From contig NC_058340.1 of assembly GCF_905475395.1 (NCBI RefSeq), forward strand, positions 73,634,181 to 73,698,180: a stretch of DNA of 64,000 nucleotides. Reading direction: 5' to 3'. Each line of letters begins with the position of its first letter. Positions within the stretch are counted from its first letter, which is position 1. Positions 21,215 to 54,597 of the stretch are shown here, piece after piece. The position numbers and the translations under genes were made by a program. The notes beneath the pieces were generated by a model. That model searched no databases. It saw only the letters and a list, made by a program, of their open reading frames with translations, and had not been told where the DNA came from. The stretch is from Chrysoperla carnea. Its lineage: Eukaryota; Arthropoda; Insecta; Neuroptera; Chrysopidae.

Positions 21215-24200
21215 ATGAAATTATCTGTTTTGATTTTAGTGATTTTGGTATCTATTGTGCGGGATAGTTATGGTAAGACTTTATAAAATTATCTTAGCCT
21301 TGTAAGACAAGAATGTTTCCTGTTCACCTGGCTTTTATTTTATTCAGATTTCAAAATAAGAACCTTTTATCGAGACTTACCAAATCGCGACCAACCTAAA
21401 AGAAAGTAACGCCTTTATTTATATTTTCAGCTAATGCCATTGGAAATAGAAATAACAACAATTTAAATAATGACAACAATTTACGATGTAAGTTTAACAA
21501 TTTTTCATTTTTTATGGCATAAACGATACAAAATAGTTTTAAGTTTGACTGAAAATATGAGTTTTTCATATTTGTAAATCAAGAGCGAAACCTGGTAAAT
21601 TTTCATTGTAATCAAAATTTCAAACATTTATAACATCAAAAATCCATTGTGTCCAGATAATCTAGAAACTTTTAAATTTTATTCAATATTTTTAGAATCA
21701 TGCTTTATTAACGACTCATAATCTCTAGCTCATGGGTGTATGATTGCAAAATGGAGTTTTATTAAACAGAGAATTTTAAAAGACTTCCATTGAGATTACA
21801 AATTTTATCTTTTTGTATCAGATCCTTCCTTTTCATTTTAAGGATGCAATCAAAATAAGATTTTGATAACATTTAACTAGCCTAATAAGCTTCTTCCTTA
21901 CAAAACTAGTTGTTTTATTTACAGCTGAAAGAGGCGCCAGAGGTTACCCCAGCATATCTAACTATAACCCCAGCCCCTATTGGAAAGGTGAAAATAGTAA
22001 TGAAGCTGTTCAAAGCTATTTATTAGTTAGCAGTGACGATAGTAAGTAACTTTAAGAAAATTTTAAAACAAACTCTAGATTCTAGAAGATTTATTCTTGT
22101 TCAGAAAATGCTCACAAATACTTTAGTCAAGAACTACGTGATTCCAAAAGCTATCAGCTTAGTTATTTCGTTGGTCAAACGACATTTCACTAAGAACTTT
22201 TATAAGTGGTGGTATATATTATTATTTATAACGGAAAATAATGTTTTTAGTCGCAAATGGTGCGATGACAAATGTTGTGACTCGATTAAATAGTCCTGTT
22301 GGCTACGTAGTAGTTCCTTCTGGGGGTGCAGTGGGTAACAATAATCTCTTTAGCAATGGTAAGTTTTGTTTTTTTCATACAAAATAAACAGTAAAAAAAG
22401 TAGTTGCAAAAACGTAGGTATGTTCTTAATAGGAAAACGTTCTTGATTCAAATATTTTTGCTTGGCATACTTTATTAATTTTTTAAGCAGTTCTCTTCGG
22501 TATTTAGAAAAATATGAATAAAAATTAAACTTTGAACGATCTTGTTTAGTTCTTCCAGGCAGAGGTTTTCAACGAAGTTCAGTATTAGCAAATAATGGAT
22601 TAAATAATGGAGTACTACCTCATCAAGGCCTTGTAGTTCTTAATGGTGGCCGAAGTAAGTTTCTTCGTACAATTATGAAAAATTATATGCCTAGATAAAA
22701 TAATGTATAAACATTTTCAGATATGGTTCCAGTAGGAAGATTAAATTCAAATAATGGAGCCTCATCATTAATGTTGCTTGATGGAAATAATCAAGGTAAT
22801 TAGAAAATTACTAGCTGTTAAACCCGCTTCGCTGGGTTGTTTTTGGAGATTTAAATATCAAAATTGTTAAATGAAAGACTTTTTTTTTAATTCTCTCTGT
22901 GTGTACGGAACAGTAAGATTTTTTAGGCCGATCTCAATATTATGTCTACACTCTCTGTGTGTACGGAAAAGTAAGGGAAAGATCGATAGAAACCCATGGA
23001 ACATTCCAGAATATTCGAGAAAATTCTAGAAAATTCGATAGTAATCCATAGAACATTCCAGAATGTTCGAGAAAATTCTAGAAAATTCGACAGAAACCCA
23101 TGGAACATTCCAGATTGTTCGAGAAAGTTTGATAAAATTCAATAAAAATCCATACAACATTCGAGAATATTCGAGAAAGTTCTAGAAAATTCGATAGAAA
23201 TCCATGGAACATTCCAGAATTTTCGAGAAAAATCGAAAGACATTTGCGCCAGAAGCGCCATCTAGTGAAAATGGTACTATTGACAGTGGCGCCATCTATT
23301 GAAAATTATTAGAACTAAAAAATCGAAAGACATTTGCGCCAGCAGCGCCATCTAGTGAAAATTGTACTATTGACAGTGGCGCCATCTATTGAAAATTATT
23401 AGAACTATTTTTTAATCTATTTTCTATGAATTCCTGGATCATTTTTAATTCAACCCCCACCAAACTCCCTTATTCACAATGCACCCCCACCAAACTCCCT
23501 TATTCACAATGGGAGCCTAAGGGCTACCCAATGACATAATCCCCTACCGAAGGTCAATGGTTAGTTTTAGGGAAAATCGGGAACATACAAACAAACACTC
23601 TCTTTTTATATATATAGATGTAAACATAATTTTGTTTTTCTGATATATATAAGTTAAATTATTCTCTTTTCACTGAATTTTTAGCAAAGAAATATAATCG
23701 TATAGCAGCAGGTTCAGGGTCCAGAGCTTTGGAAGCTAATAATAACAATGCCGTCAACAATCCAGGTGCAGGTCAAACCTATGTGCTAGTTACTGATGAT
23801 GCAAGTAAGTTTTACTTTATGCTAAATACAAATTCAATAGTTCAGCTCGGTGATACAAAGCTAATTGTGAATCGGTTAGAATTAAAGTTCAAGTCATCAT
23901 TGACCTTTGAGTTAATGCAAATTTTTCTACAAAAGTACTTTTGAACTTTATCCCAGATCTAAGAGTGGCAAACTATCGTATTGTTTTCGAATTTTTCGTG
24001 TTGTTATTGTGTTGAGTAGAGAGGTAAAAAAATCAAGAATAGAATGTATTGGGAATAGAATTGGGGATAAAATTGGTAAAACTTCTTAGTTTCTTATTGA
24101 AATCATCGAAGGAGACGAACCGTCGGTACTCTTATAAAAACTTTCAATGATGACACAACCGGATTCAATTAAACAAAATCGTTTTCCTGCACCAATCAAG

Positions 24201-30886: not shown

Positions 30887-32199
30887 TTAGTAATATTCAT
30901 GGGAGCTGGCGTATGAAGATGAATCATCACCGAAAGGACTTCCTCCACGGTGTCCACCACCTTGAGGTTTGTACAAACCAGCACTCTTCAATACTTGATC
31001 ATGTGCCCGAAAATGAGCTTGTTTAGCTAAAGTAACTTCAGCGGTTTCATGTGGTACACCTTGTCCTGGAGCATAACCACTAGCTTGTACACGGATTGGT
31101 TTGGATTCAGCATGGAAGACATTACTGTTTTGGGAACTGCTTGCACCACCTGGATGATTTCCACCTTCGTATGTATCACGTTTACCTAAATGATGGTGAC
31201 CACCTCCGCTGACATGGACTACATGGGGATGACCGAAGTAGGCGTTATGATTTTGGGTACTGTAGGCATGACCATGACCATATCCGTTTCCACCGACATA
31301 ACCTCCATGATAAGCAGAACGTCTACGACGATAATGTCCATGGCCTCCACTGACATGAACTACATGTGGATGACCGAAATAAGCGTTATGATTTTGGGTA
31401 CTGTAGGCATGACCGTGTCCGTGTCCATTACCACCATGTCCATAGTAAGTTGTTCCACGACGATGACGAGATAAAGCTTTAGCATGTGCTTCGAAATGGG
31501 CAGCTTTAAGTGCAGCTACTTCTGGAGTATCTAATGGAACACCGTTATGTCCAATACGTGGTACATCTTCAACTTGGACAACTTTTTCATAGGCTGGACT
31601 AGATAGATAATTCTTTGGATTTTTAATCACTTTCACACTAGCTGAAGGTCCATATTGGTAATTTGATTGGTATAATGGGCCAGATTCGTAATGAGATGGA
31701 CCGGATTCATAATGAGATGGACCAGATTCGTAATTAGATGGGGCTGAGTAGTCAGATCCAAAGTGTGATGATGAACCAGTAAATCCTGATGAGTAATGAG
31801 ATAATCCTGGACCACCGTATGAGTAGGATGATTCATGATTGTAATGAGCTGGCCCAGAATTGTAGGATCCTTCTGAATTATAGTGTGCTGGTTGAGCAGG
31901 TGTAAATAATTTTGGACCTGCGTATCCAGCGGATTGAGTGAATGGAGATGTTAATCCTGATTCGACACTTGGACTTTTGTATGATGAACTGTAGAAAGAT
32001 GGTTTTCCGGCTCCAAAACTACCACCATGACTTGGACTTCCACCAAAACCAGATGAGAATGGTTGATATTTTCCACTGCCATAGTTTTGGCCGACTGTTA
32101 CAGCCAATAAACTTGCCAAACAAATCTGAGAAAAAACCAAAAAATTAAATTTTGAAAAAAAATTTTGCGAATATATCCAATATTTACCAGAATGTTCAT
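30887..32199 (-). CDS. Cuticular protein, His-rich polyprotein-like
   Basis: Exon 1 (32188-32199) encodes only MNIL and has a GTAAAT donor. A 62-nt phase-0 intron (32126-32187) precedes exon 2 (30887-32125), giving 416 residues. The signal peptide (MNILICLASLLAVTVG) straddles the intron, as in many insect cuticle genes. Ser/Tyr/Gly-rich repeats (HYESGPS) lead to a cuticle motif at about 194-222 (IGHNGVPLDTPEVAALKAAH), with a weaker copy at about 355-385 (GVPHETAEVTLAKQAHF). Between them lie basic sites RHRR (224-227), RRRR (270-273) and KR (319-320). These bound two peptides of 46 and 47 residues that share AYSTQNHNAYFGHPHVVH and are very rich in His. The only cysteine I see is in the signal peptide. 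A role in the exoskeleton matrix follows from the motif; proteolytic processing is inferred. Confidence 0.85.
31204..31419 (-). repeat. Two in-frame copies of an 18-residue-plus His-rich block
   Basis: Copies at about 31,204-31,278 and 31,345-31,419 encode the same protein block around AYSTQNHNAYFGHPHVVH. They differ at several nucleotides (GTC/GTT and AGC/AGT codons among others), and the differences I checked are silent. The protein repeat has apparently been kept by selection after the DNA copies diverged. Confidence 0.85.
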
Positions 32200-32232
32200 G
32201 ATGACCAGATGTAGGAATTCGTTGCCAAAATT

Positions 32233-37384: not shown

Positions 37385-38644
37385 TTAGTAATGTCCATCG
37401 TATGATGAACCATGATGGCCATGAGCGCCTGCTCTTGCTGAAGCTTCAGCGAGTGCAGCGAAATGTGCTTGTTTGGCATGTGCAACTTCTGGTGTTTCTA
37501 ATGGTACACCATTATGGCCAATGACTGGAATATGGATTGGTCCATGATAAGCGCCATGACTAGCGGCTCCATGACCTGCATATCCCGCACCTCCTAAATG
37601 TTGATTAGCATACGATGATGCTGCACCATGTCCGGCATAAGCTCCTGCACCATGTCCTGCATAAGCGCCAGCATTATGGTATCCCCCACCAACACGTGAT
37701 AGAGCTTCAGCATGTGCTGCGAAATGTGCATGTTTTAAAGCTTGTACTTCTGGTGTTTCAATTGGTTGTCCATTATGTGCTAATTGTGGGTAAGTGTGTG
37801 CTTCGTAGCTTGGACCACCTAAGTATGCTCCATGTCCTGCAGCTCCATAACCAGCACCATAACCATGTCCTAAACCACTACCAGCTTTTGCATGAGCAGC
37901 AAAATGTTCAGCTTTGGCAGCTTGTACTTCAGGTGTGTCAAGTGGTACACCATTGTGTCCAATCACTGGTACTGCATATCCTCCATAGATTCCACGACGT
38001 CTACGGTAATGTCCGTGTCCACCATAAGATGCGGCAGCTGCTGCTTTTGCATGTGCTGCAAAGTGGGCAGCTTTCGCAGCTTGTACTTCGGGTGTATCAA
38101 TTGGCACACCTCCGTGTCCAATTATTGGTACTGCATAATGTCCTCCATAATGTCCAGCACCACCTAATCCAGCATATCCACCAGCATAAGCTCCATCATG
38201 ACCACCATAATAACCACCAGCTCCTTGATGTGATCGGACTGCATGAACATGTGATAAATGGGCTTGTCGTGCATGTACAACTTCAGCGGGTTCTAATGGT
38301 ACTCCAGTATGTCCAATCACTGGGATATTGATTGGATAATGATGTTGTGGATAATATCCAGCAAATGAGATCGCCAAAAGGCTGGTGAAAACAATCTGAA
38401 AAATCAAAAATTATTAGTTTTCGCACCTTTTAAGACTGGTGTAAATTTGGATATTTAATGCCAGTTTGTTATTTCTCAAAAAAACGGTAAACTGTTTCTC
38501 TAAGTTTTACTTGAATTCGAGTCCAAGGATCTAAATTGGCACTAGGGATCCAAATTTGCATTTAAATCCAAGATTCAAATATCCAAATTGACACTAGGGA
38601 TCGAAATAAACACTTGAGTTCAGAATACTTACAAGAACCTTCAT
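37385..38644 (-). CDS. Cuticular protein with five GHNGVPLDTPEV motifs
   Basis: Exon 1 (38633-38644) encodes MKVL and ends at GTAAGT. The phase-0 intron is 38396-38632, and exon 2 is 37385-38395, giving 340 residues. The signal peptide is MKVLIVFTSLLAISFA. Five copies of the cuticle motif start near residues 28, 92, 145, 206 and 293, each resembling VIGHNGVPLDTPEVQAAKAA followed by HFAAHA; the first is the most diverged (EPAEVVHARQAHL). Spacers are Gly/Ala/Tyr/His-rich (GHGAGAYAG). No cysteine is seen. GHYRRRR at 133-138 (codons at 37,994-38,005) matches the same site in the neighbouring cuticle gene. Gene structure and motifs make the two paralogues, in the same direction 5.2 kb apart. A structural role in cuticle is well supported; which cuticle or stage is unknown. 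Confidence 0.9.
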
Positions 38645-43329: not shown

Positions 43330-44195
43330 TAATCATAAAACTTAATGACGTTATCAAAATCCAAAAAATTTAATTTTGCTCTATCACATCAAAACTTTAT
43401 CCAATTTTGATAAACTAAGTATGTAATCCTACTAAATTTGGATCAAACTTTTCAAATTTGGGATCAAACTTAACTTAGCTCTAATAAGTTTCAAGAATGA
43501 GTCCTAGTCCCGGAATTTAGCACATAAATGATAGCTAGCGAAAAATTGGCAATCACACCTGAAAAGAATGACCTAAAGTTAGTGGATTTCAAAAAAAATT
43601 CCAATAATATCGGATCAAGTTGGCCTGAGTTATCAAAAAAATCGAATTTTTTAACTTTATGGCGTCATTAGAATCCAAAAAATTGAATTTTGCTCTATCA
43701 CATCCAAATTTGATAAACTAAGTATGTAATCCTACTAAATTTGGGTCTTACTTTTCAAATTTGTGATCAAAATTAACCTAGCTCTAGTAGGTTGAAGAAT
43801 GTGGAGTCCTGGTCACGGAATTAAGGACATAAGTGATGGCTAGCGAAAACTTAAACAGCTGAAAATAATGACCCAAAATTAGTGGGCTTCAAAAAAAATT
43901 CGAATAAGATCGGATCAAATTTGCCTGTGTTCGAATTTTTGAACTTTATGACGTCATAAGAATCCAAAAAAATTATTTTTGCTCTATCACATCCAAAGTT
44001 TATCCAATTTTGATGAATTAAGTATGTTATCCTACTAAATTTGGATCATACTTTTCAAATTTTAGATCAAAATTAACCTAGTTCTAAGAGATTTCAAGAA
44101 TGTGGAGTCCTGGTCTCGGAATTAAGATCATAACTGATAGCTAGAGAAAAATTGACATCACAGCTGAAAAGAATGGCGCAAAATTAGTCCTATGA
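43330..44195 (+). repeat. TGACGTCA satellite-like family, three tandem monomers
   Basis: GCTCTATCACATC recurs at 43,379, 43,692 and 43,981, giving monomers of 313 and 289 bp. The palindrome box appears as TGACGTTA, TGGCGTCA and, intact, TGACGTCA at 43,949-43,956. A TAGCTAG.GAAAA core and AGCTGAAAA.AATG follow in each unit. Confidence 0.85.
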
Positions 44196-54045: not shown

Positions 54046-54144
54046 TTGAATAATTGAGCAAATTTTTTTACATTTTATCAATTACTTTGACATTTGTTGG
54101 CTTTATGTTTTTTAAGATTTGTATGCAAAAATCTTGATTACAAA

Positions 54145-54597
54145 ATGTCAACGAGAAGTAGAAATGTAATAAATTATAATTTCGAAGGTTCGTCATTACC
54201 AAAGTTTCCTGATTTTCTGGCGGATGATATCCAGTTTTGGTTCTATCAACTGGAAATGGCATTTACAATTGGAAATATTAATGATGAACTTACGGAATAT
54301 TATAGAGGTTCTTGCTCAATTCCAAAACCATTCATTCATTGTGTTAAGAAAATCATAGTACATTCTCCTGAACAAAATAAATATTTAGCTTTCAAAAATA
54401 CTTGTTTGGAAACTTTTGGACTTTCTTATCAAGAACGTCTCCAAAAATACCTTTCGCTGAACCAAAACGATTTTGACTATCCATTATCTCTTAATTTTGA
54501 AGCAATATATAGTAAATCCAGAAAGTACAAGTTTTCAAATGAGCTAGTGAGCTGTTCTATATATTCGATGATTTTTTGCAGAGATATAGCTGTTTGA
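54145..54597 (+). pseudogene. Ty3/gypsy-type gag remnant (DUF7041-like)
   Basis: An open frame of 150 residues from ATG at 54,145. It contains a pattern typical of arthropod Ty3-type gag N-terminal domains: LPKFPDFLADDIQFWFYQLE near residues 16-35, an INDELTEYY phrase, a KYLAFKNTCLETFGLS segment and a QERLQKYL end. The last 40 residues lose this character before a stop, and no zinc knuckle, protease or reverse transcriptase follows, so this is a dead fragment. DUF7041 is my recognition of the pattern and was not searched. Confidence 0.6.

What the first reader, a model, noticed from the sequence alone, without database searches (positions are those of the whole stretch)
22985..23236. Helitron-borne array of contiguous heat-shock elements in a silk-like gene intron
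Forty of every 52 bases are abutting alternating nGAAn/nTTCn pentamers. I count about 33 intact pentamers, including two runs of eight without a break. Eight phased pentamers is far more than the three needed for a heat-shock-factor trimer site. The array sits in a non-autonomous Helitron inside intron 6 of a secreted structural-protein gene. Helitrons that spread heat-shock elements have been described in Caenorhabditis; this would be an insect counterpart. It could make the host gene, or an intronic transcript, heat-responsive.
Basis: partly seen in the sequence, partly recalled or inferred. Interest (0 to 1): 0.82.

Follow-up and report, generated by a model that had tools for sequence, protein, structure and literature searches.

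The report
Lacewing jumping gene carrying heat-shock switches
A family of small rolling-circle jumping genes in what looks like the common green lacewing carries rows of perfect binding sites for the heat-shock master regulator, an arrangement reported before from Caenorhabditis worms, so it may have spread heat-responsive switches through an insect genome.

Summary
Confirmed, and the pattern is genome-wide. The array at 22983-23236 holds runs of 8, 8, 7 and 5 abutting nGAAn/nTTCn pentamers. It lies in an 808-bp non-autonomous Helitron, minus strand, 22811-23618, bounded A|TC...CTAG|T, in a predicted intron. The genome fits Chrysoperla carnea. Six-pentamer sites number 1916 genome-wide, against 0 for the reversed pattern. 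All 60 copies examined carry a run of eight, including 20 of 20 picked by their 3' end alone; roughly 320 copies are estimated. A separate autonomous Helitron family, identical at 12 places over 551 bp, has a heat-shock-gene-like promoter: four perfect pentamers starting 37 bp before a TATA box, ahead of a Helitron_like_N frame. The host encodes HSF.

Most likely the array is an HSF platform that serves, or served, the transposon under heat. Against: pentamer bases decay as fast as spacers after insertion, two of five unit types have broken pentamers, and the link between the two Helitron families is weak. HSF binding and heat response are untested. A published survey found Helitron HSE clusters only in Caenorhabditis (PMC6927752), so this is a new, perhaps convergent, insect variant.

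The parts
22811..23618 (-). Non-autonomous Helitron, 808 bp, 5' end at 23618 (A|TCTATATATATAAAAAGAGAGTG), 3' end at 22811 (CAGCTAG|T)
   Evidence: Among 59 other copies a regular expression found the 3' end in 56, next base T in 55; both ends in 51, preceding base A in 50; exact window ends
22983..23236 (.). HSE array: about five 52-bp units; phased pentamer runs 8, 8, 7, 5
22811..22840 (-). Helitron 3' end: hairpin AACCC-A-GC-gaa-GC-GGGTT followed by the last 10 bases, which end in CTAG
   Evidence: sequence; DNA fold -4.4 kcal/mol; 12 of 200 shuffles fold at least as well
23228..23407 (.). Two 90-bp direct repeats next to the array with four GCGCCATCT motifs (CTCF-like from recall, not tested)
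   Evidence: the four are the only GCGCC[AC][CT]CT matches in the 64-kb window
23453..23511 (.). Two 29-30-bp direct repeats near the 5' end of the Helitron
22721..22795 (+). Predicted host-gene exon upstream of the element; donor GTAATT at 22796, 15 bp from the insertion
   Evidence: splice consensus read by eye; no transcript
23685..23804 (+). Predicted host-gene exon downstream of the element (frame ...TYVLVTDDA...)
   Evidence: splice consensus and open frame read by eye; no transcript

Best explanation
The array belongs to a non-autonomous Helitron family of roughly 320 array-bearing copies in the lacewing genome. Each copy examined carries tandem 52-bp units, more than half of them of the two types with eight contiguous heat-shock-element pentamers. 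Shown: the anatomy, the scale, a host HSF exon, and a separate recently active autonomous Helitron with an HSE-TATA promoter ahead of its Helitron_like_N frame. Inferred: on heat or proteotoxic stress HSF trimers bind the arrays cooperatively and open chromatin, while HSF switches on a Rep protein. This couples transposition, or at least access of Rep to the element, to stress. As a by-product the copies scatter strong HSF platforms through the genome, where some may act as heat-dependent enhancers or start cryptic transcripts. At this insertion I expect HSF binding on heat shock but no regular role in the host gene.
For: 1916 six-pentamer sites genome-wide, 0 for the reversed pattern. The 50 distinct sites listed there, at 10 places on C1, all match the family unit, two of them with one changed spacer base (read by eye). 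All of 40 copies picked by array similarity (window included) and 20 of 20 picked by 3' end carry at least one run of eight. Helitron ends: A before TC in 50 of 51, T after CTAG in 55 of 56. HSF DNA-binding exon (frame with HSNMASFVRQLNM). Autonomous Helitron: Helitron_like_N in frames of 1462-1467 codons for 7 of 11 equal-scoring matches; four perfect pentamers at L084:654, TATATAAG at 691, frame open from ATG 1131; a run of 4 or more in 11 of 20000 Markov sequences; identical at 12 places, the source included, over 551 bp. Array unit and autonomous HSE share 21 of 23 bases (score 36; 100 Markov shuffles, maximum 31). Precedent: HSF-1-dependent heat induction of Helitron1_CE in C. elegans (PMC6765114, passages; PMC6927752, sections).
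Against: Private substitutions are as frequent in pentamer cores as in spacers (9.50 and 9.50 per 1000), so no insertion-level constraint. Two of five inherited unit types have broken pentamers, so the source was not strictly kept perfect. The autonomous and non-autonomous ends share short motifs, but their 3' alignment scores like shuffles (22; mean 20.9, max 28) and the GCGCCATCT repeat too (29; max 32), so the HSE-promoter family is not shown to be the mobilising partner. Three other autonomous families have no run of 3 or more in the 1.1-1.2 kb read around their starts, and 801 bp of an older subfamily has none. No binding or expression data.
Confidence: 0.6

Rival explanations
1. The pentamers are a by-product of a short tandem repeat. 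A near-palindromic 10-bp motif (GAANATTCNA) was amplified inside the Helitron, as Helitrons often carry central tandem repeats (recalled), and HSF plays no part in the element's life.
For: TRF also finds a period of 10 over 22999-23236. Cores and spacers decay equally. Two broken unit types spread along with the intact ones. A satellite arising from central tandem repeats of a Helitron is reported (PMC11431837, passage).
Against: The commonest two unit types keep all eight pentamers while three spacer bases and one base outside the block differ; this is a small number. A separate autonomous Helitron in the same genome has an HSE with a TATA box in promoter position. Even if accidental, such runs should bind HSF (established HSE knowledge).
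Confidence: 0.3
2. This insertion has been taken up as a heat-dependent enhancer or intronic promoter of the secreted structural-protein gene around it.
For: Position inside a predicted intron, 15 bp from the donor site; very strong predicted HSF site.
Against: This copy is one of several hundred, with broken units and fewer phased pentamers (28) than 31 of the other 39 array-selected copies (3 equal, 5 lower). No expression data, no orthologous locus compared.
Confidence: 0.08

Closest known systems
HSE-bearing Helitrons of Caenorhabditis (Helitron1_CE, HelitronY1_CE, HelitronY1A_CE, HelitronY4_CE, Helitron2_CE)
   Same: Rolling-circle transposons with clustered, tandem HSEs; copies spread through the genome; an autonomous version with HSEs; HSF present in the host.
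   Different: Insect host. Here a 52-bp unit carries up to eight contiguous pentamers and all 60 copies examined have arrays, whereas 2 to 44 percent of copies per class carry HSEs in C. elegans (PMC6927752). That study found no HSE enrichment in Helitrons and no HSE clusters outside Caenorhabditis. Binding and induction are shown in C. elegans, not here. Homology of the arrays was not tested.
Helitrons/HINEs with central tandem repeats (DINE-1 type of Drosophila; recalled)
   Same: Short non-autonomous Helitron with an internal tandem array of variable copy number.
   Different: The repeat unit here is built of contiguous HSE pentamers.
Copia of Drosophila (said to contain sequences like heat-shock-protein gene promoters; PMC12910113, passage) and ONSEN of Arabidopsis (recalled)
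   Same: Transposons that may use the host heat-shock system.
   Different: LTR retrotransposons, a different element class.

Membership tests
Helitron (rolling-circle transposon), non-autonomous | 5' TC, 3' CTRR (here CTAG), insertion between A and T without target duplication | tested here: met
   A before TC in 50 of 51, T after CTAG in 55 of 56; among the 51 copies with both ends, one pair shared a 25-base flank
[quoted passage not shown]
   seven pairs with one bulge, followed by the last 10 bases; z -1.69, 12 of 200 shuffles at least as stable
Helitron (rolling-circle transposon), non-autonomous | autonomous Rep/helicase relative with the same ends in the genome | tested here: inconclusive
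   Helitron_like_N genes exist (helicase part not tested). One sampled family shares TCTATATATATAA at 5' and GCGAAGC...AGCTAG at 3', but the 3' alignment is at shuffle level
Heat shock element (HSF binding site) | at least three contiguous alternating nGAAn/nTTCn pentamers | tested here: met
   runs of 8, 8, 7, 5
Heat shock element (HSF binding site) | HSF encoded by the host | tested here: met
   PF00447 over cut-off, one exon (positions 23-60 of 100)
Heat shock element (HSF binding site) | binding by HSF and heat-dependent transcription | not testable with these tools
   no ChIP or RNA data on hand
HSE-bearing Helitron of the Caenorhabditis kind | HSEs in an autonomous element's promoter | tested here: met
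   four perfect pentamers, then TATATAAG, then the Helitron_like_N frame, in one autonomous family that is separate from the window's family; start of transcription not known
HSE-bearing Helitron of the Caenorhabditis kind | common descent with the Caenorhabditis elements | not tested
   no nematode Helitron sequence was compared

The most novel reading that the evidence does not exclude
Insect Helitrons have, independently of nematodes, evolved as heat-shock-response parasites. A very recently mobile autonomous Helitron runs on an hsp-like promoter, its non-autonomous relatives carry amplified HSF arrays with better HSEs than the one host hsp70 promoter read, and together they couple transposition to heat and have rewired the lacewing heat-shock response through hundreds of insertions.
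Probability: 0.3. Interest if true: 0.85.

Novelty: new variant of a known kind. Interest (0 to 1): 0.64.

Why it matters
The one broad survey I read found Helitron-borne HSE clusters confined to Caenorhabditis (PMC6927752, sections). A lacewing family behind most or all of 1916 six-pentamer sites would show that this is not a nematode peculiarity and may have arisen more than once. That makes a general question testable: do rolling-circle transposons repeatedly take over the heat-shock response, and do they rewire it in insects? The lacewing has a chromosome-level genome, young insertions and a recently active autonomous Helitron, so heat-shock RNA-seq and HSF profiling could answer it directly.

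Tried and rejected
Capture of a host hsp70 promoter by the autonomous Helitron: the 551-bp promoter/5' UTR query gave 52 matches from 23 candidates, none at the coordinates of the Hsp70 matches. The 451-bp upstream stretch of one Hsp70 gene aligned to it like a shuffle (21; mean 20.6; 86 of 200 at least as good). A recent capture from that gene is not supported; the other Hsp70 genes and other heat-shock genes were not read.

An array in the autonomous element: one promoter HSE only in L084, and none in the extra stretch of an older subfamily (L101). The stretches at C3:1677173 (L085), C6:10657585 (L087) and C6:11860636 (L088) lack runs of 3 or more; the true 5' ends of those three families were not found.

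Selection on the pentamers after insertion: looked for, not found. Viral contigs: 0 matches for a 28-place family pattern.

Papers: no HSE-bearing insect Helitron appeared in the listings (12 of 12 papers listed; 20 of 722; 20 of 32; 4 of 4; 10 of 579; 1 of 1; 12 of 18); titles, term counts and abstract starts were seen. Passages of PMC10815273 (honeybee) and PMC12910113 (Drosophila virilis) were checked and say nothing on it. Subscription papers are missing from that library. The motif search (15 of 407 listed) gave nothing usable.

Not obtained: a search with the 5' end alone and a whole-family count by a 3' end pattern; the tool was busy each time. So copies without arrays, and a cognate autonomous element, could not be sought in full.

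Full report
What is there. The window comes from a 559-Mb genome in 337 sequences. Two of the six sizes differ slightly. The array at 22983-23236 is real: 36 GAA/TTC cores, phased runs of 8, 8, 7 and 5 pentamers, 28 pentamers in runs of 3 or more. Of 5000 Markov sequences of like composition none had more than 6 such pentamers.

The element. On the minus strand, 22811-23618 is a compact Helitron of 808 bp. Among 59 copies fetched from the genome a regular expression found the 3' end in 56, followed by T in 55. Both ends were found in 51, and A precedes TC in 50; the three misses at the 3' end are L010, L018 and L022. Among the 51, one pair shares a flank (L023, L030). A small hairpin precedes the last 10 bases; its stability is not exceptional (12 of 200 shuffles as good). 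From the 5' end the order is: two 30-bp repeats, two 90-bp repeats with GCGCCATCT motifs, the HSE array, and the 3' end with its hairpin. The insertion lies 15 bp inside a predicted intron of a gene that seems to begin with a signal-peptide-like exon near 21215 and to continue with Gly/Tyr/Asn-rich exons. Two long exon-like frames gave no Pfam family. Exon borders are read from splice consensus only.

Family and genome scale. A search with the array region gave 44 matches, 40 of 315 first-look candidates being scored. I fetched 39 places besides the window. All 40 copies have 25-44 phased pentamers in runs of 3 or more and at least one run of eight. Since that set was picked by the array itself, I also searched with the last 150 bases of the element only. 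All 20 have arrays with a run of eight, 13-44 phased pentamers and 2 to 9 six-pentamer sites. The six-pentamer pattern occurs at 1916 sites in the genome, its backward reading at 0. The 50 sites listed there, at 10 places in the first 7.2 Mb of C1, all match this family's unit, two with one changed spacer base. At 5.9-6.05 sites per copy this is about 320 array-bearing copies. The figure is rough and assumes that the other 1866 sites also belong to the family.

Is the array under selection? In 329 units from 60 copies there are five unit types. The commonest two (123 and 58 units) keep all eight pentamers and differ from each other at four columns, none of them a pentamer core. Two other types have broken cores, and one is the array's end unit. 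Substitutions rarer than 5 percent within a type are equally frequent in cores (75 in 24 columns), spacers (50 in 16) and the rest (39 in 12): 9.50, 9.50 and 9.88 per 1000. The copies examined are therefore young and decay without regard to the pentamers. Any selection would have acted on source elements, and the few differences between unit types do not settle it.

A second Helitron in the same genome. Helitron_like_N gives 64 matches; 11 share one score and E-value, and 7 of these lie in open frames of 1462-1467 codons. I read the 5' and 3' sides of the one at C5:68392098 (L084, L086). The element starts A|TCTATATATATAATAAA at L084:320. It carries two GGCGCCATCTGTTATCGAATATTTGAACTTC repeats, then AGAAATTTCTCGAATATTCT (four perfect pentamers, L084:654), TATATAAG (L084:691) and a long frame from ATG L084:1131, in register with the Helitron_like_N match. 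It ends CCCGGGCGAAGCCGGGTTTTTAAGCTAG|T. The middle was not read, and no helicase domain was tested. A run of four pentamers in this 811-bp stretch is unlikely by chance (11 of 20000). Of 12 further copies sampled by a 101-bp stretch, 10 have the same HSE and TATA letters. One stretch missed the promoter, which one search finds elsewhere in that copy, and one is a diverged variant. Twelve places, the source included, are identical over 551 bp, so this family moved very recently. Three other autonomous families read in the same way have no HSE run.

How the two relate. The array unit and the promoter HSE share 21 of 23 bases (score 36, shuffle maximum 31). The GCGCCATCT repeat matches over 32 bases only at shuffle level (29; maximum 32), and so does the 3' end (22; maximum 28). 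The need to spell an HSE explains part of the first match. I therefore treat the autonomous family as a relative at best, not as the proven partner.

The host side. HSF is encoded. Upstream of one Hsp70 gene of a divergent pair (C4:64686295) I find, by eye, five pentamers of which two have one mismatch, followed by TATATAAG. The layout is that of the Helitron promoter, but the longest perfect run is 2, and there is no sequence similarity beyond chance. The transposon's sites are thus better HSE matches than this host promoter's; only one host promoter was read.

Reading. The best account is an HSF-responsive Helitron system as in Caenorhabditis, where HSF-1 binds Helitron HSEs and drives heat induction of Helitron1_CE (PMC6765114, passages; PMC6927752: section 4 part 1 of 4, sections 9 and 12). 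That survey found enrichment only in Caenorhabditis and no HSE clusters in other bilaterians with annotated Helitrons; I did not re-run it. The lacewing is thus an exception, perhaps because it was not in the set or its Helitrons were not annotated. Function in the lacewing is inferred. The plain rival is a minisatellite that happens to spell HSEs.

Noticed in passing
window 23228-23407; L084:520-640: Both Helitron families carry repeated GCGCCATCT motifs, which resemble the insect CTCF motif as I recall it. The four in the window are the only GCGCC[AC][CT]CT matches in 64 kb; 52 of 60 family copies have at least one.
   Followed up: partly
G000 C6 (X chromosome by size), 6-13 Mb: 35 of the 64 Helitron_like_N matches lie on C6, 32 of them at 6-13 Mb, though C6 is the smallest of the six chromosomes. 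Some elements give more than one match.
   Followed up: no
G000 C3:3767553-3809834: Seven Helitron_like_N matches on one strand, five of the six spacings 5813-5815 bases, six of seven in 720-721-aa frames: apparently a head-to-tail tandem array of Helitrons.
   Followed up: no
G000 C7:377020, C7:190501, C192:15033: Helitron_like_N within open frames of 2462, 2462 and 2158 codons, much longer than the others.
   Followed up: no
window 30890-32230 and 37388-38410, minus strand: Two Gly/His-rich frames with repeated GHNGVPLDTPEV-like motifs, cuticle-protein-like from recall; no Pfam family.
   Followed up: partly
window 54091-54594, plus strand: Frame matching PF23055 (DUF7041, E 3.6e-12), probably part of a retroelement gag (recall).
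   Followed up: no
window 43339-44188: Tandem repeat of period 300, 2.8 copies, 80 percent matches.
   Followed up: no
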